In this document: positions 16,770 to 41,964 of the stretch, one piece after another
How positions within the stretch are numbered: position 1 is the first letter of the stretch
Layout: the number at the start of each line of letters is the position of its first letter
DNA from: Magnetospirillum sp. SS-4
Lineage (GTDB): Bacteria > Pseudomonadota > Alphaproteobacteria > Rhodospirillales > Magnetospirillaceae
Assembly (NCBI RefSeq): GCF_902729425.1
Contig: NZ_CACVCH010000001.1
Coordinates: 379,501 to 443,500, forward strand
DNA: 64,000 bases
Direction: 5' to 3'
Made by a program: the position numbers and the translations under genes
Notes under the pieces: model-generated
Seen by the model: only the letters and a program-made list of their open reading frames with translations
Databases searched by the model: none
Told to the model about the DNA's origin: nothing

Positions 16770-18503
<1,734 letters not shown>

Positions 18504-18772: not shown

Positions 18773-19165
18773 ATGAGTTGGACGATTGAGCAATCGGCTG
18801 CAATTGCCACGATTGTGAGCTTGGTAATTGCGGCGATATCCCTGGTCATACTGATCTATCCTGCATTCAAATATGTTAGAATCCGCAGGGAGGATCGCCA
18901 GCATCGCGAATTTGAGACATATCATGGATTGGTCAAAACAGCAGTTGGCGATACAGATAATATTGCAAATAGGTATGCAGATCGACAAATTGCTGCAATT
19001 TATGAATTGCGGAACTATAATAGGTACTATGAAGTTACAGGACGCATCTTGGAAAATTTAAGGAAAGCCATTAACTCAAGAGACACCCGTAATGATCAAG
19101 GCCCATTATCCGTCTGTAAAGAAATCGATCTCACTCTTGACGTAATTACGAGATACAAAAAATGA
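18773..19165 (+). CDS. AT-rich small membrane protein, probably acquired
   Basis: 130 aa from the ATG at 18773, with AGGAG nine bases upstream. A single transmembrane helix lies near residues 8-30 ([20 protein letters not shown]), then a basic RRED region and a soluble helical part ([30 protein letters not shown]). No family recognised. Its base composition is far more AT-rich than every neighbour, and it sits just after a small inverted-repeat element, both pointing to transfer. The stop overlaps the phosphomannomutase start (ATGA), so it is nevertheless positioned for translational coupling. Confidence 0.65.
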
Positions 19166-20550
19166 CCCACGCCTTCCACCCCACCATCCTGCGGGAATAC
19201 GACATTCGCGGCATTGTCGGCGAAACCCTGTTCGCCGCCGATGCCCGCGCCATCGGCCGTGCCTTCGGCACCCGCGTGCGCCGCAACGGCGGCCGGGTGG
19301 TGTGCGTCGGCTGGGACGGGCGGCTATCGTCGCCCGAGATGGCCGAGGCGCTGGCCGAGGGCCTGATGGCCTCGGGATGTTCGGTGCGGCGCGTCGGGCG
19401 GGGGCCGACCCCGATGCTGTACTACGCCGCCAAGGTACGGGAGGCCGATGGCGGCATCATGGTGACCGGCAGCCACAACCCCCCCGACCACAACGGCTTC
19501 AAGATGGTGCTGGCGGGGCGGCCGTTCTTCGGCGCCGACATTCAGGACCTGGGCCGGCTTGCCGCCGCCGGCGATCTTGAAAGCGGCGAGGGCGAGGCGG
19601 TCGACGACGCCATCCTGCCGGACTATGTCGCTCGCCTGGCACAGGATTACGACGGCGCCCGCGACCTGACCGTGGTGTGGGATTGCGGCAACGGCGCCAC
19701 CGGCGAGGCGCTGGCCGAACTGGTCAAGACCCTGCCCGGCCGCCACACTGTGCTGTATGGCGAGATCGACGGACGTTTTCCCAACCACCATCCCGACCCC
19801 ACCGAGCCCCACAATCTGGTGGCGCTTCAGGACCGGGTGCTGGTCGAGGGCGCCCATCTCGGCATCGCCTTCGACGGCGACGGCGACCGTATCGGCGTGG
19901 TCGACGGCGAGGGCCGCATCCTGTGGGGCGACCAGATCCTGGTGATCCTGGCCGAGGACCTGCTGAAGGCCCGGCCCGGCGCCACCATCATCGCCGACGT
20001 CAAGGCCAGCCGGGTGTTCTTCGACGAGGTGACGCGCATGGGCGGCAACGCGGTGATGGGCCGTACCGGCCATTCGCTGATCAAGACCCGGATGGCCGAG
20101 ACCGGGGCGCCCCTGGCCGGCGAGATGAGCGGCCACATCTTCTTTGCCGACCGCTATTACGGCTTCGACGACGCGCTGTACGCCGCCGTGCGCCTGCTGG
20201 GCGTGGTGGCACGCTGGGATCGGGAAACCTTGGCCCATCGCCGCGACCGGCTGCCCCACATGGTCAACACCCCGGAATTGCGCTTCGACTGTCCCGACCA
20301 GCGCAAGTTCGCCGTGATCGGCGAGGTCAGGGCGCGACTGGAGGCGGCGGGCGCGGCCTTCAACGCCATCGACGGCGTTCGCGTCGACACCGCGGACGGC
20401 TGGTGGCTGCTGCGCGCGTCGAACACCCAGGCGGTGCTGGTGGCCCGTTGCGAGGCCGCCTCGGCCGAGGGGCTGAAACGGCTGCGGGCCGCCCTGGCCG
20501 ATCAATTGGCGCAAAGCGGGGTCGCGCCGCCGGCCTCAGTTGGACATTGA
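19162..20550 (+). CDS. phosphomannomutase/phosphoglucomutase
   Basis: Alpha-D-phosphohexomutase of the AlgC/ManB group, making mannose-1-phosphate (and possibly glucose-1-phosphate) for nucleotide-sugar and polysaccharide synthesis. 462 aa with all four active-site loops: [11 protein letters not shown] (phosphoserine), FDGDGDRIG (metal), GEMSGHIFF (sugar) and RASNTQAV (phosphate). Second hexomutase in the window after pgm. A product for GDP-mannose would fit the GDP-sugar-like dehydratase at 26945, but that link is inferred. Confidence 0.93.
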
Positions 20551-21794: not shown

Positions 21795-22781
21795 TCAGGT
21801 CAGCCGCTGGGGCTGGGTGTGCCAGCGCCAGGCGTCCTCGACCATCATCGGCAGGGCGCTGCGGACCGGCTTCCAGTCCAGCAGCGAACGGGCGCGCGAG
21901 CATTCGCCCACCAGCGAGGCCGGATCGCCGGAACGACGGTCGCGGACCAGCACCGGCACGATCTGACCGGAGACGCGCTCGACCTGCTGCAACACCTGCC
22001 GCACCGACCAGCCCTCGCCGGTTCCCACATTGAGGGTGAGCGGCCAGCCCCCATCCATCATCCGCCGCAGCGCCAGGATATTGGCGGCGGCCACGTCGCC
22101 CACATGGACGTAGTCGCGCATGCAGGTGCCATCGGGGGTGTCGTGGTCGCGGCCGAACAACAGGAAAGCGGCCCGTCGCTGCATCGCCACCTCGATGGCG
22201 ACGGGAATCAGGTGGGTTTCGGGGTGGTGGGCCTCGCCGATCTCGCCGGCGGGGTCGGCGCCGGCGACGTTGAAGTAGCGCAGACAGGTCCACGACAGCC
22301 CGGTGTCGCGCCCGACATCGGCGATGATCTGCTCGGCCACCCATTTGGAGCGGCCGAAGGGATTGAGCGGCGCCACCGGATGGGCCTCGTCGGCGGGCGA
22401 GAATTCACCCAGCCCGTAGACGGCGGCGGAACTGGAATAGACCAGGTGGGGAATCCCCGCCGCCGCCATGGCCTGGAGCAGGGCGATGGTGCCGCCGACA
22501 TTGACGTCGAAGAAATCCAGGGGGGTGTTGGCGTCAAGCCGGCAATCGACCAGGCCGGCCAGATGGATCACCCCCACCGGATGGTGAAGACGCATCACCT
22601 CGATCAGGCGCTGGCGGTCGCGGACGTCGCCCTGTTCCAGCGGCCCCCAGCGCACCGCCCAGTCGTGGCCGCCGGACAGGTTGTCGTAGGCCACCGGCGA
22701 CCAGCCGGCCTCGGACAGGGCCTTGCAGGTATGACTGCCAATATAGCCGGCACCGCCGGTGACCAGGACTGAGGGACGCAT
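21795..22781 (-). CDS. UDP-glucose 4-epimerase-like SDR with altered catalytic motif
   Basis: 328-aa extended SDR with NAD loop VTGGAGYIGSHTCKAL, active-site Ser region YSSSAAVYG, and GalE-type features (CLRYFNVAGADP, CMRDYVHVGDVAAA). Overall it looks like GalE, which interconverts UDP-glucose and UDP-galactose. The YxxxK motif, however, reads FGRSK (codon TTC), so the catalytic tyrosine is phenylalanine. In GalE this substitution severely lowers activity, so the protein may be impaired or have a different role. Flanked by its own 3' hairpin and divergent spacer; no sugar operon around it. Confidence 0.82.
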   Translation of the reverse strand: MRPSVLVTGGAGYIGSHTCKALSEAGWSPVAYDNLSGGHDWAVRWGPLEQGDVRDRQRLIEVMRLHHPVGVIHLAGLVDCRLDANTPLDFFDVNVGGTIALLQAMAAAGIPHLVYSSSAAVYGLGEFSPADEAHPVAPLNPFGRSKWVAEQIIADVGRDTGLSWTCLRYFNVAGADPAGEIGEAHHPETHLIPVAIEVAMQRRAAFLLFGRDHDTPDGTCMRDYVHVGDVAAANILALRRMMDGGWPLTLNVGTGEGWSVRQVLQQVERVSGQIVPVLVRDRRSGDPASLVGECSRARSLLDWKPVRSALPMMVEDAWRWHTQPQRLT

Positions 22782-23627: not shown

Positions 23628-24065
23628 ATGATCCGACGTCTTGCCGCCATTCTGTGCGTCGCCACCTTTCCCGCCATGGCCGGCGAGGTCGCTTGCCCCG
23701 ACCTCGCCACCGCCGTTCAGGTGGGTGACTGCCCCACCGAGAAGGAGCTGATGACCGGCTTCAACGGCTATTGCAGCGACAACGCCCGCATCTACGACAA
23801 GGGCGACGGCGACACCTGCCACAGCCTGGACAACTACAAAAAGCTGAAGGACACCGCCCTGTGGGAGGCCGGCGACTTCCAGGGCTATCTGCACTGCGCC
23901 ACCCCGGCCGAGACCCGCAAGAACAGCAAGCTGTTCGGCATCAAGGTCCTGCGGACCACCAAGATCACCCGGGTGATCTGCACCTATGACAATGGCGAGG
24001 AGATGACCCTGCGGACCCGCGCCGAATGCACCGTCCAGGGCAAGACCGCCATGTGCAAGGACTGA
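23628..24065 (+). CDS. small cysteine-rich exported protein
   Basis: 145 aa from the ATG at 23628, preceded by AAGGAG. An 18-residue signal peptide (MIRRLAAILCVATFPAMA) leads to a mature domain with eight cysteines spread along its length (VAC, GDC, GYC, DTC, LHC, VIC, AEC, AMC), enough for four disulfides. I do not recognise the family. Its stop overlaps the start of the ABC-2 permease gene (TGATG), so the two are likely co-expressed. Confidence 0.75.
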   Translation: MIRRLAAILCVATFPAMAGEVACPDLATAVQVGDCPTEKELMTGFNGYCSDNARIYDKGDGDTCHSLDNYKKLKDTALWEAGDFQGYLHCATPAETRKNSKLFGIKVLRTTKITRVICTYDNGEEMTLRTRAECTVQGKTAMCKD

Positions 24066-24859
24066 TGGATTCCCTTCACCGCATCGGGGCCATGTGCCTG
24101 CGCCACCTCTACATCCTGAGGGGGTCGTGGCCGAGATTGCTGGAGATGGCCTATTGGCCGGCCATCAACATGGTGGTATGGGGGTTCACCAGCCAGTTCT
24201 TCGCCACCACCTCCAACTGGGTGGCCCAGGCCGCCGGCGTGCTGATCGGGGCGGTGATCCTGTGGGACGTGATGTTTCGCGGCAATCTGGGGGTGGCGCT
24301 GTCCTTCCTGGAGGAGATGTGGTCGCGCAATCTCGGCCATCTTTCCGTCAGCCCGCTCCGCCCCCACGAACTGGTGGCCTCGATACTGTGCATGAGCCTG
24401 ATCCGCACCCTGATCGGGGTGCTGCCGGCCGCCATGCTGGCGATTCCGCTGTATCACTATTCCATCTTCACCCTGGGGCTGCCGCTGATCGGCTTTTGGA
24501 TCAACCTGATGATCAGCGGCTGGGCCATCGGACTGGCGGTCTCGGCGCTGGTGCTGCGTTTCGGCCTGGGCGCGGAAAGCCTGGCCTGGGTCCTGATCTT
24601 CGCCATCGCGCCGCTGGCCGGCATCTATTACCCCATCGCCACCCTGCCGGAATGGCTGCAACCGCTGGCCTGGGCGCTGCCGCCGGCCCATGTGTTCGAG
24701 GGCATGCGCTCGGTCATGCTGGGGCATGGCTTCCGCCTCGACCTGCTGGTCTCGGCGATGGCGTTGAACCTGCTCTATCTTGCCGCCGGGACCGCCCTGT
24801 TCCTGTGGGTCTGGCACGGCGCCCGCATCCGGGGCGCCCTGCTGAACGTGGACGAATAA
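24065..24859 (+). CDS. ABC-2 type transporter permease
   Basis: 264 aa with six hydrophobic segments and ABC-2 permease features (VVWGFTSQF, FGLGAESLAWVLIFAIAPLAGIYYPI, ALPPAHVFEGMRS). Such permeases export drugs, lipids or glycans together with a separate ATPase. None is adjacent; the ATPase at 41233-41964 is equally isolated and is a possible partner. Coupled to the cysteine-rich protein gene upstream and followed 22 bases later by a tiny gene. Confidence 0.85.
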   Translation: MDSLHRIGAMCLRHLYILRGSWPRLLEMAYWPAINMVVWGFTSQFFATTSNWVAQAAGVLIGAVILWDVMFRGNLGVALSFLEEMWSRNLGHLSVSPLRPHELVASILCMSLIRTLIGVLPAAMLAIPLYHYSIFTLGLPLIGFWINLMISGWAIGLAVSALVLRFGLGAESLAWVLIFAIAPLAGIYYPIATLPEWLQPLAWALPPAHVFEGMRSVMLGHGFRLDLLVSAMALNLLYLAAGTALFLWVWHGARIRGALLNVDE

Positions 24860-24881: not shown

Positions 24882-25073
24882 ATGACGATCGATCTCGATT
24901 CCGACCTTGCCGCCCGCCTCGCCGCCTGCGCCCGCCGCCTGAGGCGCGATCCGGCCGAATGCGCGCGGGCCGCCGTCCAGGCCTTCGTCGCCGATTGCGA
25001 GGAGGCTTTCGCCCACGCGGCCCAATTCGGCGACGGCGTCGCGCGAATGCCCGATGACGGTTTCATGGATTGA
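24882..25073 (+). CDS. ribbon-helix-helix-like small protein
   Basis: 63 aa. The start (MTIDLDSDLAARLAACARRL) and the following helix (DPAECARAAVQAFVADCEE) fit a ribbon-helix-helix DNA-binding fold as in antitoxins and small regulators. No toxin gene is adjacent. GGAGAACGGCGC precedes the ATG. It lies between the ABC-2 permease and the split transketolase genes and could belong to either transcript. Confidence 0.6.
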   Translation: MTIDLDSDLAARLAACARRLRRDPAECARAAVQAFVADCEEAFAHAAQFGDGVARMPDDGFMD

Positions 25074-25137: not shown

Positions 25138-25965
25138 GTGGAAGCTTCAGGGGTCAACGTTGATCTGAAAGCCAAGGCGGACTGGGTCTGGCGCCAGACC
25201 CTCAAGGTCTATCGCCGGGCGCCGGAAGTCCGGCTGGCGTCGTCGCTGTCGCCCATCGAGATTTTCGTCTCGCTTTATTACGGCGGCCTGATGCGGTTCG
25301 ACCCCCAGAATCCCGCCTGGGAGGAGCGCGACCGCTGCATCATCAGCAAGGGCCATGGCTCCATCTGCATGTATCCGATCCTGGCCGACCTGGGCTTTTT
25401 CCCCGCCTCGGAACTGGAACGGGTGTGCCAGGCGGGCAGCTTCCTGGGTGGCATCCCCGATCCGGTGATCCCCGGCTACGAGACGGTCAACGGCTCGCTG
25501 GGCCACGGACTGGGCGTCGCCAGCGGCATGGCGCTGGGCCTCAAGGTCAAGGACGGGCCGCAAGACGTCTTCGTGGTCACCGGCGATGGCGAACTGCACG
25601 AGGGCGCCAACTGGGAAGCCATCATGTTCGCCGCCCAGAACCGGCTGGACAACCTGACCCTGGTGGTCGACGACAACCGCATCTGCATGCTGGGCTTCAC
25701 CGACGAGATCAATTCGCTGGGCCGGCTGGCCGACCGGCTGGGCGGCTTCGGCTGGCACTGCCTGGAGGTGGACGGCCACGACGTCATGGCGGTGCATCGG
25801 GCGCTGTCGCACCTGAAGAAGACCCGCGACGGCCGGCCCAAGGCGCTGGTGGCCCGCACCATCAAGGGCCGGGGCGTGCCGGGGCTGGAAAACGCCCCCA
25901 TGTCCCATGTGATGTCGCCCAGTTTCGATGTCATCGACGCCCTGTTGCAGGAGCCCCGGCCATGA
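25138..25965 (+). CDS. transketolase, N-terminal subunit
   Basis: 275 aa starting at a GTG with AGGGG upstream. It carries the thiamine-diphosphate half of transketolase: SKGHGSICMYPILADLGFF, SLGHGLGVASGMALGLK and the ThDP/metal motif GDGELHEGANWEA with VVDDN. It pairs with the next gene, which supplies the pyrimidine-binding and C-terminal domains; the two overlap (ATGA). Split transketolases of this kind often sit in specialised sugar loci instead of the pentose phosphate pathway, and here the genes that follow act on nucleotide sugars. The donor and acceptor are unknown. Confidence 0.88.
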   Translation: MEASGVNVDLKAKADWVWRQTLKVYRRAPEVRLASSLSPIEIFVSLYYGGLMRFDPQNPAWEERDRCIISKGHGSICMYPILADLGFFPASELERVCQAGSFLGGIPDPVIPGYETVNGSLGHGLGVASGMALGLKVKDGPQDVFVVTGDGELHEGANWEAIMFAAQNRLDNLTLVVDDNRICMLGFTDEINSLGRLADRLGGFGWHCLEVDGHDVMAVHRALSHLKKTRDGRPKALVARTIKGRGVPGLENAPMSHVMSPSFDVIDALLQEPRP

Positions 25966-26924
25966 ACGAGCCCAAGCCGAGGGCCATGCGCGACGCCCTG
26001 CTGGAGCGCATCTGGCAAGGCATGGCCGACGACGAGCGCCTGTTCTTCGTCGCCGCCGATTTCGGCGCCCCCACCCTGGACCGCATCCGCGGCGACTTCC
26101 CCAGGCGGTTCATCAACGTCGGCATCGCCGAGCAGAACCTGATCAACGTATCGGCCGGCCTGGCGCTGGAAGGCTTCACTGTCTTCGCCTACGCCATCGC
26201 CCCCTTCATCACCATGCGCTGCTACGAGCAGTGCCGCACCAACCTGGCGCTGCTGTCGACGGTGCGCCCCATGAACGTCACCCTGGTGGGGGTGGGCGCC
26301 GGCTACAGCTACGTGGTGTCGGGACCGACCCACCAGTGCTACGAGGACATCACCCTGATGCGGGCGCTGCCCGGATTCCAGGTGCTGTCGCCCGCCGACC
26401 ACGTCACCGCCGGCCGCCTGTTCGACCGCTGCGCCGGCCGGCCGGGACTGAAATACCTGCGCTTCGACGCCCAGAACCTGCCGGTTCTCCATGGTGAAGC
26501 CGGCCCCGACCTGGACAAGGGCTTCGCCCTGCTGCGCGACGGCGCCGACGCCTGCGTCGTCGCCACCGGCTACATGGTCCATACCGCGCTGAAGGTGGCG
26601 GAGCGGCTGGCCCGGGACGGGATCAACCTCGCCGTCGTCGATCTGTTCGACCTGTCCGGCTTCGACGCCGACGCCCTGGCCGGACTGATGGCGGCAAGGC
26701 CGCGGGTCATCAGCATGGAAGAGGGCTTCAGCGGCCGGGGCGGCGTCGATTCCCTGCTGCGCGACCTGCTGAGCCGCCAGGGGCTGGAGCGCCCCACCTT
26801 GGGGCTCGGAGTCGAACCGGCCTATCGTTTCGAGCTGGGCGACCGCGCCACCTTGCACGAACAGGTGGGAATTGGCCCGGCGGTGGCCGAGGCCAGCGTG
26901 CGCACCTTCCTCAACCGGCCCTAA
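25962..26924 (+). CDS. transketolase, C-terminal subunit
   Basis: 320 aa from the ATG at 25962. The pyrimidine-binding domain has FINVGIAEQNLINVSAGLALEG with the catalytic Glu, followed by a transketolase C-terminal domain (ACVVATGYMVHTALKVAERL, VVDLFDLSGFDADAL). It forms the functional enzyme with the preceding subunit and transfers two-carbon ketol units. The close link with a His-type PLP dehydratase, an SDR and a B12-radical SAM protein suggests a ketol transfer to a keto-sugar nucleotide (inference). Confidence 0.88.
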   Translation: MNEPKPRAMRDALLERIWQGMADDERLFFVAADFGAPTLDRIRGDFPRRFINVGIAEQNLINVSAGLALEGFTVFAYAIAPFITMRCYEQCRTNLALLSTVRPMNVTLVGVGAGYSYVVSGPTHQCYEDITLMRALPGFQVLSPADHVTAGRLFDRCAGRPGLKYLRFDAQNLPVLHGEAGPDLDKGFALLRDGADACVVATGYMVHTALKVAERLARDGINLAVVDLFDLSGFDADALAGLMAARPRVISMEEGFSGRGGVDSLLRDLLSRQGLERPTLGLGVEPAYRFELGDRATLHEQVGIGPAVAEASVRTFLNRP

Positions 26925-26944
26925 CACACAGGATTGCCTGGACC

Positions 26945-28117
26945 ATGTTCTACGAACTCGCCGCTCCGTCCTGGGGGCCTGAAGAGGCCGCCGCCGCCAA
27001 GGCCGTCATCGATTCCGGCTTCTACACCATGGGCGCCAACGTCAAGGCGTTCGAGGAGGAGTTCGCCGCCTATCACGGCATGAAGCACGGCATCATGGTC
27101 AATTCCGGCTCGTCCGCCAACCTGATCGCCGTCGCCGCCCTGGCCTACAAGGCGGACAGGCCGCTCCAGCGGGGCGACGAAGTCATCGTGCCGGTGATCT
27201 CGTGGGCCACCACCTATCACCCGTTGCAGCAATACGGCCTGAAACTGCGCTTCGTCGATGTGGACCTCGCCACCTTGAACATCGACGCCGCCCAGCTGGA
27301 AAAGGCGCTGACGCCCAAGACCAGGGCCATCGTGGCGGTATCCATCCTCGGCAATCCGGCGGCGCTGGACGTGATGCGCGCCTTTGCCGACCAGCACGGC
27401 CTCTATCTGATCGAAGACAATTGCGAGAGCATGGACGCCGAGCTGAACGGCCGGAAGGCCGGCACCTTCGGCCACCTCAACACCTTCAGCTTCTTCTTCT
27501 CGCACCATATCTCGACCATGGAAGGCGGCATCATCCTGACCGATGACACCGAGCTGGCGCATCTGTGCCGTTCGTTGCGCGCCCACGGCTGGACCCGCGA
27601 CCTGCCTCCGGACAGCCCGGTGTTCCAGAAGAAGGGCAACGACTTCTTCGAGGCCTACCGCTTCGTCCTGCCGGGCTACAACGTCCGGCCGCTGGAGATC
27701 GAGGCCGCCATCGGCCGCCAGCAGCTGAAGAAGCTGCCGGGCTTCACCGCCCAGCGCCGCAAGAACCTGGCACTGTTCCAGGAATTGTTCGGCAACGACG
27801 ACCGCTTCATCATCCAGAAGGAGAACGGCAAGTCATCGGCGTTCTCGTTCACCATCATCCTCAATCCGGCGCTGAAGATCGACCGCAACAAGGCGTTCGC
27901 CGCCCTGAAGGACGCCGATATCGGCTATCGCATTATCACCGGCGGCAATTTCCTGCGCCACGACGTGATCCGGCACTACGAGTACGAGGTGGTCGGCGGC
28001 GGCGTGCCCAACGCCGACCTCGCCCACGACCACGGCTTCTTCGTCGGCAACCATCCGTTCGATCTCACCCCCCAGATCACCCGCCTGCGCGAGGTTCTGG
28101 ACGCGGCGTGTCGCTGA
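26945..28117 (+). CDS. DegT-fold PLP enzyme, probable ColD-type sugar 3-dehydratase
   Basis: 390 aa of the DegT/DnrJ/EryC1/StrS fold (NSGSSANLIAVAAL, EDNCESMDAEL, LPGYNVRPLEIEAAIG). The lysine that normally binds PLP is replaced by histidine: SFFFSHHISTMEGG, where aminotransferases have a Lys at the first His. In this fold that swap marks deoxysugar 3-dehydratases such as GDP-4-keto-6-deoxymannose-3-dehydratase (ColD) and the E1 dehydrase of ascarylose synthesis. The cysteine cluster of the iron-sulfur E1 type is not evident, so ColD is the closer model. Its product would be a 4-keto-3-deoxy sugar nucleotide, a suitable acceptor for the transketolase pair upstream. Confidence 0.82.
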   Translation: MFYELAAPSWGPEEAAAAKAVIDSGFYTMGANVKAFEEEFAAYHGMKHGIMVNSGSSANLIAVAALAYKADRPLQRGDEVIVPVISWATTYHPLQQYGLKLRFVDVDLATLNIDAAQLEKALTPKTRAIVAVSILGNPAALDVMRAFADQHGLYLIEDNCESMDAELNGRKAGTFGHLNTFSFFFSHHISTMEGGIILTDDTELAHLCRSLRAHGWTRDLPPDSPVFQKKGNDFFEAYRFVLPGYNVRPLEIEAAIGRQQLKKLPGFTAQRRKNLALFQELFGNDDRFIIQKENGKSSAFSFTIILNPALKIDRNKAFAALKDADIGYRIITGGNFLRHDVIRHYEYEVVGGGVPNADLAHDHGFFVGNHPFDLTPQITRLREVLDAACR

Positions 28118-28289
28118 TTCAAACGCCCGAATCGGGCTGGACACCGGAAACGCATTGCAACTAGTGTGGCTTTAAAATTCGAAGGTCCTAATGTTCGGCG
28201 AAACGCCCTGACAGGATTTTCGAATTCGCCGCACCGGCCGCCATGCGCGCCGGCGCCCACAGACCATGAAAATGAAGGGGAGCGAAGCG

Positions 28290-29228
28290 ATGTCTTACAA
28301 TATCCTGGTGACCGGCGGCGCCGGCTATCTCGGGTCGATTCTCGTGCCCGAACTGCTGGCGGCCGGGCACAAGGTCACCGTGCTCGACAACTTCATGTTC
28401 AAGCAGAACTCGCTGGCGCATTGCTGCTCGAACCCCAACTTCTCGGTGGTCAAGGGCGATTGCCGCAATGACACCCTGATGAAATCGCTGATTGTCGGCG
28501 CCGACGTCGTCATCCCGCTGGCCGCCCTGGTCGGCGCGCCCTTGTGCTCGCTCGATCCCATCGGCGCCACCAGCACCAATCTCGACTCGCCGCTGGCGCT
28601 GTTCAAGATGCTGTCCAAGGAACAGCGGGTGCTGATGCCCATCACCAATTCCGGCTACGGCATCGGCGAGAAGGGCAAGTTCTGCACCGAGGAATCGCCG
28701 CTGCGGCCGGTGTCGCTGTACGGCATCCACAAGGTCGAGGTGGAGAAGGCGCTGCTGGAGCGCGGCAACGCCATCAGCTTCCGCCTCGCCACCGTGTTCG
28801 GCATGGCGCCCCGCATGCGCATCGACCTGCTGGTCAACGACTTCACCTACCGCGCCGTCACCGACCGCGCCGTGGTGCTGTTCGAGCCGCATTTCAAGCG
28901 CAACTACATCCATGTGCGCGACGTCACCCGCGCCTTCATGCACGGCATGGACAATTTCGACTCCATGAAGGATCAGGCCTACAATGTCGGCCTGTCCGAC
29001 GCCAATTTGTCCAAGTGGGAACTTGCCGAGGTGATCCAGAAGCACCTGCCCAAGTTCGTGTTCGTGGAGGCCCCCATCGGCGAGGACCCCGACAAGCGCG
29101 ACTACATCGTCTCGAACGAGAAGATCGAGCGGACCGGCTTCAAGCCCGCCTTCTCGCTGGACGCGGGCATCCAGGACCTGATCAAGGGCTACACCATGAT
29201 CAAGAACAGCATCTACGGCAACGTATAG
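28290..29228 (+). CDS. NAD(P)-dependent nucleotide-sugar epimerase/dehydratase (extended SDR)
   Basis: 312 aa from the ATG at 28290. NAD loop LVTGGAGYLGSILVPEL, active-site region TNSGYGIGEKG and an intact YGIHK catalytic motif. HFKRNYIHVRDVTRAF is typical of sugar-nucleotide SDRs. It probably reduces, epimerises or dehydrates the sugar nucleotide made by the neighbouring dehydratase and transketolase; exact chemistry is unknown. The 172-base spacer before it contains inverted AATTCGAA/TTCGAATT motifs and may hold an internal promoter. Confidence 0.85.
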   Translation: MSYNILVTGGAGYLGSILVPELLAAGHKVTVLDNFMFKQNSLAHCCSNPNFSVVKGDCRNDTLMKSLIVGADVVIPLAALVGAPLCSLDPIGATSTNLDSPLALFKMLSKEQRVLMPITNSGYGIGEKGKFCTEESPLRPVSLYGIHKVEVEKALLERGNAISFRLATVFGMAPRMRIDLLVNDFTYRAVTDRAVVLFEPHFKRNYIHVRDVTRAFMHGMDNFDSMKDQAYNVGLSDANLSKWELAEVIQKHLPKFVFVEAPIGEDPDKRDYIVSNEKIERTGFKPAFSLDAGIQDLIKGYTMIKNSIYGNV

Positions 29229-29240
29229 GCGACCGATTCC

Positions 29241-30749
29241 ATGACCACCACCTCGCGCCCCGATCTCGTCCTCGTCAATCCCGGCGGCCGCGAGCGCATC
29301 TACCAGCAGCTCGGCAACGACCTGACCGCCATCGAGCCGCCGCTGTGGTGCCGTCTGCTCGCCGGCTATGCCGTCGATCGCGGCCGGCGGGTGGTGATCA
29401 TCGATTCCGAGGCCGAGGCCATGGGGCCGCAGGCGGTGGCGGAGCGGATCAGGGACCTTGATCCGGTCCTGGTGGTCATGGTGGTGTTCGGTCACCAGCC
29501 CTCGGCCTCCACCCAGCAGATGGTGGGGGCCGGGGAGGCCTGCGCCGCCATCAAGGATCTGACGCCCGAACAGCCCATCCTCATCGTCGGTGGTCACGTC
29601 TCGGCCCTGCCCGAGCGGACCCTGGCGGAGGAGAGGGTGGATTTCGCCTGCAAGGGCGAAGGGCCGGCGACCATGATGCAATTGCTGGAATGGCTGGAGA
29701 CCGGCGCCGAGGATGAACCTGTGGGCGTGGCCGGCCTGGTGTGGCGCGACGGAGAGGACAAGATCAGGGTCAACCTGTCGGCGCCGCTGATTCACGACTT
29801 GGACACCGACCTGCACGGCAATGTCTGGCACCTGCTGCCCATGGAGAAGTACCGCGCCCATAACTGGCAGTGCTTCGGCGACCTTGCCTCGCGCATTCCC
29901 TATGCCAGCATCTACACGACGCTGGGCTGCCCCTACAAATGCAGCTTCTGCTGCATCAACGCGCCGTTCGAGTCCAACCGCTACCGCATGCGCAAGCCGG
30001 CCGAGGTGGTGAAGGAGGTCGATCACCTCTACCGCACCTACGGGGTCAAGACCTTCAAGATCATCGACGAGATGTTCGTGCTGAACGACAAGCACGTCTC
30101 GGCCATCTGCGACGGCCTGATCGATCTGGGCTATTCCGACCAGCTCAATTTCTGGGCCTATGCCCGCGTCGACACCGTCAAGCAGGGCACGCTGGCCAAA
30201 TTGCGCAAGGCCGGCATCCGCTGGCTGGCGCTGGGCATCGAATCGGGCTCGAAGCATGTGCGCGACGGCGCCGACAAGGCACTGCGGCACGAAGACATCG
30301 TCGGCATCGTCCGCGATATCCAGAAGGCCGGCATCAGCGTCATCGGCAATTACATCTTCGGCCTGCCCGACGACACCCTGGAGACCATGCGCGAAACCCT
30401 GGACCTGGCCAAGGACCTCAACTGCGAGTTCGCCAATTTCTACTCCGCCATGGCCTATCCCGGATCGGGACTCTACAATCAGGCGGTGGCCAACGGCTGG
30501 GCGCTGCCCGAAAGCTGGTCCGGCTTCTCGCAGCATTCCTACGACTGCAAGCCGCTGCCCACCGAGCATTGCACCGCCGCCCAGGTGCTGAAGTTCCGCG
30601 ACGACGCCTTCCACGAATACTTCGCCGCCGAGCGCTATCTCGGCATGGTGGCGCAGCGCTTCGGCTGGGACACCCGCCGCCATATCGAGGAAATGGCCGA
30701 GCACCGGCTGTCGCGCAAGCTGGTGGAAGAGGAATTCGGGCCGGCCTGA
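29241..30749 (+). CDS. B12-binding radical SAM protein
   Basis: 502 aa. The N-terminal half is a cobalamin-binding Rossmann domain (VLVNPGGRERIYQQL, VGGHVSALPERTLAEE, CKGEGP). The radical SAM core carries the [4Fe-4S] motif CPYKCSFC at about residue 230, then IDEMFVLN, ALGIESGSKHVRDGA and NYIFGLPDDTLETM. Such enzymes do methylations at unactivated carbons and skeletal changes. It begins 12 bases after the SDR gene and ends the sugar operon, so a role in modifying that sugar, or a carbon next to it, is the likeliest guess. Converges on mipZ with a 4-base gap. Confidence 0.88.
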   Translation: MTTTSRPDLVLVNPGGRERIYQQLGNDLTAIEPPLWCRLLAGYAVDRGRRVVIIDSEAEAMGPQAVAERIRDLDPVLVVMVVFGHQPSASTQQMVGAGEACAAIKDLTPEQPILIVGGHVSALPERTLAEERVDFACKGEGPATMMQLLEWLETGAEDEPVGVAGLVWRDGEDKIRVNLSAPLIHDLDTDLHGNVWHLLPMEKYRAHNWQCFGDLASRIPYASIYTTLGCPYKCSFCCINAPFESNRYRMRKPAEVVKEVDHLYRTYGVKTFKIIDEMFVLNDKHVSAICDGLIDLGYSDQLNFWAYARVDTVKQGTLAKLRKAGIRWLALGIESGSKHVRDGADKALRHEDIVGIVRDIQKAGISVIGNYIFGLPDDTLETMRETLDLAKDLNCEFANFYSAMAYPGSGLYNQAVANGWALPESWSGFSQHSYDCKPLPTEHCTAAQVLKFRDDAFHEYFAAERYLGMVAQRFGWDTRRHIEEMAEHRLSRKLVEEEFGPA

Positions 30750-33599: not shown

Positions 33600-33722
33600 T
33601 GTGCGTCGCCGCGAACTCTAGCCATCGCCGGCGGCCGGCGCAACGACCATGCGGCTTCCGCCCTCGGCCGGGCGGTGCTATTCTCGCGACATCTTGGGTT
33701 CAGCGGACCGGGGCATGACAAC

Positions 33723-34835
33723 GTGTTGACGGAAACGGCTGCCGAGCGGGTCGATTGCGTGGTGATCGGCGCCGGCGTGGTTGGATTGGCCATCGCCCGC
33801 CATCTGGCGGTGACGGCGGGGCGCGAGGTCGTCGTGCTGGAGGCTGAAGGCGCCATCGGCACCGGCATCTCGTCGCGCAATTCCGAGGTCATCCACGCCG
33901 GCATGTACTATCCGGCGGGCAGCCTGAAGGCCCGTCTCTGCGTCGCCGGCAACGCCATGCTGCGCGACTTCGCCGCCAGCCGGGGGGTGCCGTTCCGCAT
34001 GGCCGGCAAGCTGATCGTCGCCACCGACGAGGCCGAGGCCGCCCAACTGGACTCCATCCTGGACAAGGGTCGCGTCAACGGGGTCGAGGGACTGCGCGCC
34101 ATATCCGGCGCCGAGGCCCGCGCCCTGGAGCCCGAGTTGAACTGCGTCAAGGCCCTGCTTTCCCCCGCCACCGGCATCATCGACAGCCACGCCCTGATGC
34201 TGGCGTTGCGCGGCGACGCGGAAGAGCGCGGCGCCGCCATCGCCTTCCATGCGCCGGTGACCGGCGGAAGATGCGCGGAAAACGGCATCCTGATCCAGGC
34301 GGGCGGCGCCGAGCCCATGACCCTGCTGGCCCGTTCGGTGGTGGTCGCCGCCGGCCTGTCCTCGCCCGGGGTCGCCGCCAGCCTGGGACTGCGCGACGTC
34401 CCCCCCGCCTTCCTGTGCAAGGGCAATTATTTCGGCCTGACCGGCAAGACCCCGTTCTCGCGGCTGGTCTACCCGGTGCCGGTGGCGGCCGGACTGGGGG
34501 TTCACTTCACCCTGGATCTCGGCGGCCAGGGCCGGTTCGGCCCCGACGTGGAATGGATCGACCGCGAGGATTACGTGGTCGATCCCAGGCGCGGCGATTC
34601 GTTCTACGCCGCCATCCGCCGCTATTGGCCGGGGCTGAAGGACGGCGCGCTGGAGCCGGCCTATGCCGGCATCCGTCCCAAGATCCAGGCCCCCGACCAG
34701 CCGGCCCGCGATTTCGTCATTCACGGCCCGGCCGAGACCGGCGCCGCCGGGGTGGCGGCGCTGTACGGCATCGAGAGTCCCGGCCTGACCTCGTGCCTGG
34801 CCATCGCCCGTCATGTGGGGGAATTGCTGGGATGA
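33723..34835 (+). CDS. FAD-dependent oxidoreductase, L-2-hydroxyglutarate dehydrogenase-like
   Basis: 370 aa from a GTG at 33723 (no in-frame ATG nearby; the ribosome-binding site is weak). DAO-type flavoenzyme with [17 protein letters not shown], then [15 protein letters not shown] and a C-terminal [15 protein letters not shown]. These motifs match the LhgO/L2HGDH group, which oxidises L-2-hydroxyglutarate and passes electrons to the quinone pool. Substrate specificity is inferred by similarity. Divergent from the molybdopterin gene and coupled by ATGA to the next gene. Confidence 0.85.
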
Positions 34836-41232: not shown

Positions 41233-41964
41233 TCAGGGCCTTTGGCGGTCGCGGGCGATGTCGAGAAAGACGTCTTCCAGGTTGGCCCGGCCGAACCGTC
41301 CGATCAGCGCCGCCGGCGATCCCTGGTCGACGATGCGGCCCTGCTTCATGATCAGCACCTGATCACACATGCGCTCGACCTCGGCCATGTTGTGGGAGGC
41401 CAGCACGATGGTGGCGCCGGTGCGCCGCCGATACGCCTCGAAATAGCCGCGGACCCAGTCGGCGGTGTCGGGGTCCAGCGAGGCGGTGGGTTCGTCCAGC
41501 AGCAGCAGTTCCGGCGTGTTGAGCAGCGCCTTGGCCAGGGCGACGCGGGTCTTCTGCCCGGCCGACAGCCGGCCCGAGGCCCGGTCGAGGAGGTCTTCCA
41601 GCGCCAGTTCTCCGGCCAGTTCGGCGATGCGCGCCTTGAGGCCGGCAACCCCGTACAGCCGGCCGTAGACGGTCAGGTTCTGCCGCACCGTCAGGCGGTG
41701 GGGCAGATCCACATAGGGGCTGGAGAAGTTGAGGCGCGGCAGAACCCGGTAGCGGTCGCGCACCATGTCCTCGCCCAGCACCGCGATCGCTCCCGCGCTG
41801 GGCACCAGCAGCCCCAGGATCATGGACAGCGTGGTGGTCTTGCCGGCGCCATTGCCGCCCAGCAGCGCGGTGATCGAGCCGGCGGCGACGTCGAAACTGA
41901 TGTCGTCGACGGCGCGATTGGTCCCGAAGACCTTGCTGACGGAGCGGACCTCGATGGCGTTCAA
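41233..41964 (-). CDS. ABC transporter ATP-binding protein
   Basis: 243 aa. Walker A is GGNGAGKTTT, signature LSAGQKTR, Walker B LLLLDEPTASLDP and H-loop VLASHNMAEVERM, so it looks catalytically complete. This is the ATPase type that pairs with ABC-2 permeases (LTVRQNLTVYGRLYG). No permease is adjacent; the lone permease at 24065-24859 is a possible partner. Overlaps the upstream EAL-like gene by four bases. Confidence 0.9.
   Translation of the reverse strand: MNAIEVRSVSKVFGTNRAVDDISFDVAAGSITALLGGNGAGKTTTLSMILGLLVPSAGAIAVLGEDMVRDRYRVLPRLNFSSPYVDLPHRLTVRQNLTVYGRLYGVAGLKARIAELAGELALEDLLDRASGRLSAGQKTRVALAKALLNTPELLLLDEPTASLDPDTADWVRGYFEAYRRRTGATIVLASHNMAEVERMCDQVLIMKQGRIVDQGSPAALIGRFGRANLEDVFLDIARDRQRP

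What the first reader, a model, noticed from the sequence alone, without database searches (positions are those of the whole stretch)
25138..30749. Possible uncharacterised pathway for a branched or modified deoxy sugar
Five adjacent same-strand genes encode a split transketolase, a His-type (ColD-like) PLP sugar dehydratase, an intact sugar-nucleotide SDR and a B12-radical SAM enzyme. Known chemistry of each family suggests an order: the dehydratase makes a 4-keto-3-deoxy sugar nucleotide, the transketolase adds a two-carbon ketol unit to the keto carbon, the SDR reduces or epimerises, and the radical SAM enzyme alters a carbon. I know of no standard pathway with exactly this set. No glycosyltransferases are in the operon, so the acceptor glycan is unknown.
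Basis: partly seen in the sequence, partly recalled or inferred. Interest (0 to 1): 0.8.

Follow-up and report, generated by a model that had tools for sequence, protein, structure and literature searches.

The report
Heptose-based branched-sugar operon with radical enzyme
Five neighbouring bacterial genes look like the core of a widespread but undescribed pathway that takes a seven-carbon sugar, removes one oxygen, probably grafts on two carbons and then lets a vitamin-B12 radical enzyme make an unknown final change.

Summary
In detail: five same-strand genes at 25138-30749 encode a split transketolase, a His-type (ColD-like) C3-dehydratase, an SDR and a B12 radical-SAM enzyme. The proposed substrate and order need changing. 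The SDR is closest to PDB 6vo6 (recalled: Cj1427, a GDP-heptose C4-dehydrogenase), so it probably acts first. In 80 relatives' loci the radical-SAM gene sits with a heptose-kinase homologue (62), a His-type dehydratase (51), this SDR (48), a nucleotidyltransferase (48) and a thiamine-enzyme subunit (54). In the window genome the kinase and nucleotidyltransferase lie on another contig beside two glycosyltransferase homologues. Likely route: GDP-heptose, 4-keto, 3-deoxy-4-keto, C4 two-carbon branch, radical-SAM step. The thiamine slot is exchangeable: operons whose other three proteins are 84-93% identical carry either the split transketolase or an E1-like pair. The window transketolase lacks residues that usually bind sugar phosphates. 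The first two reactions are published in vitro for Campylobacter enzymes (passages seen); branching and radical steps are inferred. The radical-SAM enzyme forms its own clade, reaction unknown. A bradyrhizose link was tested and not supported; a caryose-like carbocycle is an untested bold reading.

The parts
25138..25965 (+). TKN: N-terminal (thiamine-diphosphate-binding) half of a split transketolase, 275 aa
   Evidence: Pfam Transketolase_N 1.3e-33; best PDB 6yak split transketolase 5.2e-50; EVRLASSLS and GGIPDP replace SGHPGMPMG and AGHPE of the genome's housekeeping transketolase, SKGHG and GDGE kept
25962..26924 (+). TKC: C-terminal (pyrimidine plus C) half of the split transketolase; ATG overlaps the TKN stop
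   Evidence: Transket_pyr 2.3e-21, Transketolase_C 1e-16; best PDB 6yaj 1.7e-31; GIAEQN and GPTHQ kept, RFDAQNLP where the housekeeping enzyme has LSRQNLP
26945..28117 (+). ColD-type PLP C3-dehydratase, 390 aa
   Evidence: best PDB 2gms 1.3e-113, 3gr9 (ColD) 6.3e-112; NCBIfam RfbH 274 bits, below its cut-off 423; His-type motif
28290..29228 (+). SDR, predicted GDP-heptose C4-dehydrogenase (Cj1427 type), 312 aa (alternative start 28266)
   Evidence: best PDB 6vo6 7.5e-116 over residues 1-311, next match 2.1e-22; the entry is titled 'putative sugar-nucleotide epimerase/dehydratase'; that it is Cj1427 is recalled and could not be confirmed
29241..30749 (+). B12-binding radical-SAM enzyme of a distinct clade, 502 aa, cluster motif CPYKCSFCCINA
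   Evidence: Pfam; below the cut-off of each of the 25 NCBIfam families shown of 28; own clade 100/100 apart from HpnJ and BchE; model pLDDT 92.3, Foldseek best TsrM, AprD4, MgmA, OxsB, CysS

Best explanation
The operon is the modifying core of a GDP-heptose-based branched-sugar pathway. [quoted passage not shown] The SDR oxidises C4; the ColD-type enzyme removes the C3 hydroxyl, giving GDP-3-deoxy-4-keto-heptose; the split transketolase carries a two-carbon acyl unit (acetyl or hydroxyacetyl) to the C4 ketone, giving a tertiary alcohol; the B12 radical-SAM enzyme then changes the carbon skeleton (C-methylation, or C-C bond formation/rearrangement). The ArnC-like GT2 beside the kinase would load the sugar on undecaprenyl phosphate for a membrane GT-C transferase. 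Shown in print for Campylobacter enzymes: C4 oxidation and C3 dehydration. Inferred: that the window enzymes do the same, the branching, its donor, the radical step and the transfer route.
For: SDR best PDB match 6vo6 at 7.5e-116 against 2.1e-22 for the next (identity of 6vo6 recalled); dehydratase ColD-type with His motif. PMC10680097 passages: Cj1427 makes GDP-4-keto-heptose using alpha-ketoglutarate, and with the HS:5 C3-dehydratase gives GDP-D-glycero-3-deoxy-4-keto-heptose. In 80 rSAM loci: heptose-kinase homologue 62, His-type dehydratase 51, SDR 48, nucleotidyltransferase 48, any thiamine-enzyme subunit 54; in the 43 with at least 8 kb on both sides 38, 36, 35, 33, 35; of 219 hits to these profiles in those 43 (Lys-type DegT and weaker SDR hits included), 126 lie within 2.5 kb of the rSAM gene, 118 of them on its strand. 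Slot exchange: L034 keeps dehydratase 92%, SDR 93%, rSAM 85% identical to the window but has E1alpha/E1beta; L032, L033, L036 have the transketolase pair; G118 (L118) likewise has the E1 pair. Own genome: kinase homologue C69:292557 with nucleotidyltransferase, GT2 and PMT-like GT-C homologues; GmhA-like C2:276329. LhgO-like genes recur in 8 of 80 loci (L092's is above the L-2-hydroxyglutarate oxidase cut-off), which fits an alpha-ketoglutarate-coupled SDR. Phylum draw: 15 of 398 genomes have the rSAM; of 10 of these 15 fetched, 8 have a split transketolase in the stretch and 2 E1-like hits.
Against: The kinase and nucleotidyltransferase homologues score far below NCBIfam's HddA and HddC cut-offs (121 of 600, 104 of 300 bits), and the nucleotidyltransferase scores higher for a mannose-1-P guanylyltransferase model (130). 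7 of 80 rSAM loci have no pathway gene. In the order sample G003, G050, G058, G063, G092 and G110 have the rSAM but no ColD-like or SDR match at 1e-60, so those two steps are not universal. Dehydratases of distant loci are only 30-33% identical to the window's (L115, L188, L196) and may act on other substrates. No enzyme of this set has been assayed; ketone acceptance by any transketolase is unproven (PMC12247030 section 2.3). The SDR assignment leans on a recalled identity of 6vo6. Linkage counts come from loci picked by similarity to the window's rSAM and are not phylogenetically independent.
Confidence: 0.6

Rival explanations
1. The substrate is a GDP- or CDP-4-keto-6-deoxyhexose, and the SDR is a late reductase or epimerase.
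For: ColD itself acts on GDP-4-keto-6-deoxymannose (recalled); GDP-fucose-synthase-like SDR2 genes occur in 35 of 80 loci; a CDP-glucose 4,6-dehydratase-type cluster is in 3 of 80 loci (L087 above cut-off).
Against: The SDR is closest to what I recall as a GDP-heptose C4-dehydrogenase; heptose-kinase homologues are linked in 62 of 80 loci; among clusters in 3 or more loci I recognised no other sugar-nucleotide 4,6-dehydratase besides a PseB-type cluster in 4 (one member scanned; not every cluster was scanned).
Confidence: 0.15
2. The SDR and dehydratase make an unbranched GDP-3-deoxy-heptose and the thiamine enzyme pair acts on another substrate.
For: 3,6-dideoxyheptoses made with a C3-dehydratase are known in Campylobacter (PMC10440746 abstract); some genomes have rSAM, transketolase and kinase homologues without ColD/SDR (L128-L131).
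Against: A thiamine-enzyme subunit, His-type dehydratase and SDR are together in 42 of 80 loci, and two different thiamine classes occupy the same operon slot.
Confidence: 0.12
3. The radical-SAM gene is only a frequent neighbour and modifies something else, such as a lipid or cofactor.
For: 7 of 80 loci have it without pathway genes; its best-scoring curated families act on hopanoids, porphyrins and peptides; strong ColD-like and SDR matches occur without it in 6 and 4 of 99 genomes.
Against: At least one pathway gene is in 41 of 43 fully flanked loci, with hits falling off with distance; rSAM next to TKN in several loci.
Confidence: 0.1
4. The split transketolase is an ordinary pentose-phosphate enzyme.
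For: Transketolase domains are intact.
Against: The genome has a full-length transketolase with the canonical motifs (L001); the window pair has lost several substrate-site positions (position names recalled); an E1-like pair stands in its place in sister operons.
Confidence: 0.03

Closest known systems
Campylobacter jejuni capsular heptose pathways (Cj1427 plus HS:5 C3-dehydratase)
   Same: GDP-heptose substrate, C4-dehydrogenase and PLP C3-dehydratase; the pair gives GDP-D-glycero-3-deoxy-4-keto-heptose in vitro (PMC10680097 passages)
   Different: In the passages seen the 4-keto sugars go on to epimerases and C4-reductases; here a thiamine enzyme pair and a B12 radical-SAM enzyme follow. 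'Transketolase' and 'radical SAM' do not occur in that paper's main text
Yersiniose/erwiniose branching by YerE-like enzymes
   Same: A 3-deoxy-4-keto nucleotide sugar gains a branch at C4 from an alpha-keto acid by a thiamine enzyme (PMC12247030 passages)
   Different: YerE is a decarboxylase-class enzyme using CDP-3,6-dideoxy-4-keto-glucose; here the pair is transketolase- or E1-like and the partners point to GDP-heptose
Alpha-keto-acid-dehydrogenase-2 branching enzymes (aldgamycin, kosinostatin, kibdelomycin KbDH)
   Same: E1alpha/E1beta-type enzymes adding an acetyl unit to a keto sugar or its analogues (PMC12247030 passages); E1-like pairs fill the slot in L034 and L118
   Different: Secondary-metabolite pathways; the window has a transketolase pair in that place; no direct sequence comparison with these enzymes was made
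Miharamycin/amipurimycin split transketolases
   Same: Split-gene transketolase proposed to transfer hydroxyacetyl to a keto sugar (PMC12247030 section 2.3)
   Different: The 13 putative ketone-accepting ones counted there all come from Streptomycetes, none characterised in vitro; no direct sequence comparison made here
HpnJ, BchE and other non-methylating B12 radical-SAM enzymes
   Same: Best NCBIfam scores are HpnJ 174 and BchE 144 bits; such enzymes form or rearrange rings (PMC13142503 passages)
   Different: Far below cut-offs; other, non-HpnJ B12-rSAMs also score 142-235 against HpnJ; separate clade

Membership tests
ColD/RfbH-type C3-dehydratase | His in place of the catalytic Lys | tested here: met
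   FFSHHISTMEGG in the window; PseC-like and some other DegT rows in the same alignment have Lys
ColD/RfbH-type C3-dehydratase | NCBIfam RfbH cut-off | tested here: not met
   274 of 423 bits; nearest solved structures are the 2gms/3gr9 group, named Wbdk and ColD
Cj1427-type GDP-heptose C4-dehydrogenase | closest solved relative is 6vo6 over full length (that 6vo6 is Cj1427 is recalled) | tested here: met
   7.5e-116, residues 1-311 on 1-311; next 2.1e-22; identity of the entry not confirmed
Cj1427-type GDP-heptose C4-dehydrogenase | activity on GDP-heptose with alpha-ketoglutarate | not testable with these tools
   needs an assay
GDP-heptose supply (GmhA, HddA, GmhB, HddC) | homologues in the genome | tested here: inconclusive
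   HddA-like 121 of 600 and HddC-like 104 of 300 bits; GmhA-like 202 of 209; GmhB-like ORF on C18, 146 bits to a locus profile
Transketolase (pentose phosphate) | Transketolase_N, Transket_pyr, Transketolase_C domains | tested here: met
Transketolase (pentose phosphate) | substrate-site residues (E. coli His26, His100, His461, Asp469, Arg520; numbers and roles recalled) | tested here: not met
   replaced against the genome's own canonical transketolase and, for the His461 and Asp469 positions, against human and split transketolases
YerE-type branching (yersiniose) | decarboxylase-class thiamine enzyme with CDP-sugar genes in the operon | tested here: not met
   split transketolase in the window; no CDP-sugar gene in the operon
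HpnJ or BchE | NCBIfam cut-off and clade | tested here: not met
   174 of 577.6 and 144 of 481 bits; separate clades 100/100
Cobalamin-dependent radical-SAM enzymes | B12-binding domain plus CxxxCxxC core | tested here: met
   cobalamin binding itself not tested
Cobalamin-dependent radical-SAM methyltransferase | methyl transfer | not testable with these tools
   TsrM is the top Foldseek hit by E-value, AprD4 has the highest TM-scores of those listed (0.70/0.77); neither decides
Bradyrhizose operon | present in photosynthetic Bradyrhizobium (synteny conserved in six strains, PMC4743980 section 19) | tested here: not met
   in 195 genomes of one genus, taken to be Bradyrhizobium, 20 have Photo_RC, 4 the rSAM, 1 (G535) both
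Caryose pathway | cluster present in the caryose producer (Burkholderia/Trinickia caryophylli, recalled) | not tested
   no genome of that name was among the 80 loci kept and no further named genome scan was allowed

The most novel reading that the evidence does not exclude
The radical-SAM enzyme closes a ring: a radical at C7 of GDP-4-C-acyl-3-deoxy-heptose bonds to the carbonyl carbon of the new branch, giving a cyclopentane-fused bicyclic sugar of the caryose type (3-deoxy-heptose plus two carbons at C4 plus a C7-C8 bond; structure recalled). With the transketolase variant the branch might end in CH2OH instead of CH3. This would be a redox-neutral enzymatic route from a sugar nucleotide to a carbocyclic surface sugar, spread over several phyla.
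Probability: 0.12. Interest if true: 0.85.

Novelty: new variant of a known kind. Interest (0 to 1): 0.62.

Why it matters
If right, this is a broadly distributed surface-sugar pathway for which my full-text searches found no description (open-licence papers only, most subscription papers are not held). It would place split transketolases on a ketone acceptor in many Gram-negative bacteria, a reaction proposed but never shown in vitro (PMC12247030 section 2.3), and give a natural experiment: closely similar operons with a transketolase or a pyruvate-dehydrogenase-E1-like pair in the same slot. It also gives a B12 radical-SAM clade of unknown reaction a concrete substrate to try, a GDP-activated branched heptose.

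Tried and rejected
[quoted passage not shown] Rejected.

Shewanella 236-Da flagellin moiety (C9H16O7, PMC3765264 passages): 'radical SAM', 'transketolase' and 'heptose' do not occur in that paper's main text. Dropped as coincidence; the S. oneidensis genome was not checked for the cluster.

HpnJ as the radical-SAM identity: best NCBIfam hit, but far below cut-off, and other B12-rSAMs score as high. Rejected as a membership claim. The tree used 14 rSAM rows of the more than 80 held; other_L161 and other_L165 yielded no ORF with the cluster motif, and L153-L156, L158, L164, L169, L170 were not used.

The upstream ABC-2 permease (24026-24859) and the LhgO-like gene (33714-34835, 207 of 299 bits) were considered as parts and not included; I saw no permease among the clusters in 3 or more loci (by reading their first residues), though G154's cluster also has an ABC2_membrane gene upstream.

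Confirming that PDB 6vo6 is Cj1427: not found in two papers searched, and the structural paper is not held; it stays recalled.
Full report
WHAT IS THERE. The transketolase C-half begins at 25962, its ATG overlapping the stop of the N-half. The window lies in a 4.53-Mb genome of 130 contigs; the five nearest named rSAM relatives, 82-87% identical, include Paramagnetospirillum and Magnetospirillum, so the host is probably of that group (inference).

THE TWO STEPS WITH THE FIRMEST BASIS. The SDR aligns over residues 1-311 without gaps with 6vo6 at 7.5e-116, the next solved relative being at 2.1e-22. The entry is titled 'putative sugar-nucleotide epimerase/dehydratase'; from recall it is Campylobacter Cj1427, which I could not confirm in the papers held. 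The dehydratase is closest to 2gms and 3gr9 (Wbdk, ColD; 1.3e-113) and has His in place of Lys. [quoted passage not shown] with the HS:5 C3-dehydratase it yields GDP-D-glycero-3-deoxy-4-keto-heptose. A relative of Cj1427 and a C3-dehydratase-type enzyme stand side by side here.

WHY HEPTOSE. The single genome-contig scan found 233 relatives of the rSAM and kept 80. Clustering the neighbours and rescoring with profiles at 1e-15 gave, in 80 loci: GHMP kinase 62, His-type dehydratase 51, SDR 48, nucleotidyltransferase 48, E1beta-like 44, E1alpha-like 39, GDP-fucose-synthase-like SDR2 35, NUDIX 17, GmhA-like 10, split transketolase halves 9 and 9, LhgO-like 8, GmhB-like 3; any thiamine-enzyme subunit 54 (both E1 halves 38, both transketolase halves 9; some E1-type hits are single long ORFs); a thiamine subunit, dehydratase and SDR together 42; none of the pathway genes 7. 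In the 43 loci with at least 8 kb on both sides: kinase 38, dehydratase 36, SDR 35, thiamine subunit 35, nucleotidyltransferase 33, all three 32, none 2. Of 219 profile hits in those 43, 126 were within 2.5 kb of the rSAM gene and 14 at 7.5-10 kb (Lys-type DegT and weaker SDR hits are in this count). The kinase homologue of the window's own genome is nearest in PDB to 3k85, 4usm, 4usk and 4n3o, two of them named heptose kinases, and in NCBIfam to HddA, but far below cut-off (121 of 600 bits); its neighbour scores 104 of 300 for HddC and 130 for a mannose-1-P guanylyltransferase. So 'heptose' is the best reading, not a proven one. Solidesulfovibrio magneticus plasmid pDMC1 shows an annotated version: rSAM, NUDIX, kinase, E1alpha, transketolase C-terminal-domain gene, GDP-L-fucose synthase, DegT, NAD-dependent epimerase, nucleotidyltransferase and, after four more genes (one a phospholipid-carrier-dependent glycosyltransferase), lhgO and a SIS-domain gene. 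An lhgO fits a dehydrogenase that makes L-2-hydroxyglutarate; L092's copy is above the LhgO cut-off (344 of 299 bits).

THE REST OF THE PATHWAY IN THIS GENOME. The kinase homologue is at C69:292557-293558 (71% identical to that of L038), next to the nucleotidyltransferase, a GT2 whose best NCBIfam matches are PgfS and the undecaprenyl-phosphate transferase ArnC (190 and 126 bits, both below cut-off), and a homologue of the cluster whose L034 member matches PMT_2. In G118 and L034 these genes follow the rSAM on the same contig, so in the window genome the set looks split in two (inference). A GmhA-like gene is at C2:276329 (202 of 209 bits).

THE EXCHANGEABLE THIAMINE ENZYME. L032, L033 and L036 have the split transketolase (TKN 91-92% identical to the window) before the dehydratase; L034 and L118, with dehydratase 92 and 88%, SDR 93 and 85%, rSAM 85 and 84% identical to the window, have instead an E1alpha/E1beta pair (L118's pair by Pfam, NCBIfam and PDB). 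Enzymes of that class are reported to add acetyl from pyruvate to keto sugars or analogues (PMC12247030 passages). Conversely the window's TKN and TKC are 70-72% and 62-66% identical to those of L188 and L196, whose dehydratases are only 33% and rSAMs 40-55% identical, as if the pair moved as a module (inference; the SDR, 66-67%, is about as close). In a phylum-wide draw 15 of 398 genomes have the rSAM at 1e-60; I fetched 10 of the 15 (not G000, G018, G260, G287, G302): 8 have a split transketolase in the stretch and 2 E1-like hits, one of these weak.

WHAT THE TRANSKETOLASE LACKS. Against the genome's own full-length transketolase (L001), the window pair keeps SKGHG, GDGE, GIAEQN and GPTHQ but has EVRLASSLS for SGHPGMPMG, GGIPDP for AGHPE and RFDAQNLP for LSRQNLP; against human and Carboxydothermus split transketolases it has Gly for the His of GSH/ATH and VVSGPT for GEDGxS. 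By recalled E. coli numbering these are His26, His100, Arg520, His461 and Asp469; some are recalled as sugar-phosphate contacts. In 32 rSAM loci with transketolase hits (window included, several near-identical), 18 show an xASSLS motif by the pattern used, which missed L032 although one search shows it there, and 20 of the 31 readable lack the Arg; the other 11 keep it. So window-type pairs probably use an unphosphorylated donor; the donor is unknown.

THE RADICAL-SAM ENZYME. 14 rSAM rows form one clade (100/100) apart from 8 HpnJ and 3 BchE rows on a tree of 39 rows, many of them on long branches. A confident model (mean pLDDT 92.3, 59 sequences) finds B12 radical-SAM-fold enzymes of several reaction types: TsrM, AprD4, MgmA, OxsB, CysS. 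AprD4, a sugar diol dehydratase, has the highest TM-scores listed. Most cobalamin radical-SAM enzymes are described as methylases; the known exceptions form or rearrange rings (PMC13142503 passages). I give methylation and skeleton formation or rearrangement similar weight. Some genomes (L128-L131) carry rSAM, transketolase, kinase and nucleotidyltransferase homologues, and no ColD or SDR match at 1e-60 in the genome, so the rSAM may tolerate a 3-hydroxy substrate or serve a variant pathway.

THE BOLD READING. Caryose (structure recalled: 4,8-cyclo-3,9-dideoxy-nonose) equals a 3-deoxy-heptose with a two-carbon unit at C4 and one further bond between C7 and that unit. The operon offers the 3-deoxygenation, the C4 ketone, a candidate two-carbon transferase and a radical enzyme. 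No caryose producer's genome was reached, so this stays a hypothesis. The related idea for bradyrhizose was tested and not supported, with the caveat that the genus was taken to be Bradyrhizobium from genome sizes and species number.

LIMITS. The order-level association (13 of 21 against 6 of 99; 14 of 21 against 4 of 99) counts only strong matches: for the dehydratase 19 of the 24 genomes at 1e-60 (five with 249-286 bits dropped, among them rSAM-positive G018), for the SDR 18 of 19 (G114, 207 bits, dropped). The kinase count, 19 of 21 against 21 of 99, takes all matches at 1e-40, weaker paralogues included. Relatedness is not corrected. The 80 loci were chosen by rSAM similarity. No biochemical step has been shown for these proteins. 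Of the papers I saw abstracts, passages or named sections, none whole: section 9 of PMC12247030 and sections 15 and 19 of PMC4743980 in full; abstracts of PMC10440746, PMC3765264 and PMC4753412; passages of PMC10680097, PMC12247030, PMC13142503, PMC13331322, PMC3765264, PMC4743980 and PMC7949155.

Noticed in passing
G000:C18:128000-147900 (L117): A second locus of the same genome holds another split transketolase, a GHMP kinase, SDR2-like genes, a GmhB-like gene and an rSAM-like gene (177 bits): perhaps a second, related sugar pathway.
   Followed up: partly
window 33714-34835 +: FAD-dependent oxidoreductase, best match L-2-hydroxyglutarate oxidase but below cut-off (207 of 299 bits), about 3 kb downstream of the operon.
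   Followed up: partly
window 24026-24859 +: ABC-2 type permease just upstream; I noticed no ATPase next to it, but an ABC ATPase lies on the other strand at 41233-41964.
   Followed up: no
window 24882-25073 +: A short open frame (63 codons plus stop) between the permease and the operon, seen when reading the sequence; not searched.
   Followed up: no
L034:11597-13000, L118:12119-13573, L115:1993-3438: A second, different radical-SAM gene near the same clusters (profile hits; the L034 one has B12-binding and Radical_SAM domains).
   Followed up: no
L173 (Sinorhizobium fredii CCBAU 25509 plasmid pSF25509b): SDR, GHMP kinase and DegT genes together, with a nucleotidyltransferase hit, but no rSAM or thiamine-enzyme hit in the 18.9 kb read.
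   Followed up: partly
L075, L076, L077, L081: In Marinomonas and Alteromonas the rSAM-kinase block sits near PseB- and PseC-like genes (L077's PseB above cut-off), with a sulfotransferase-domain cluster nearby in three of them (L077 member tested), which may hint at a flagellin or surface-glycan role.
   Followed up: no
window 16806-18503, 19162-20550, 21795-22781: Genes that look like two phosphohexomutases (by reading, not searched) and an NAD-dependent epimerase-family gene (Pfam) a few kb upstream.
   Followed up: no
L185 (G363:C1:639486-641015): rSAM relative at 44% identity with one in-frame TGA as reported by the search.
   Followed up: no
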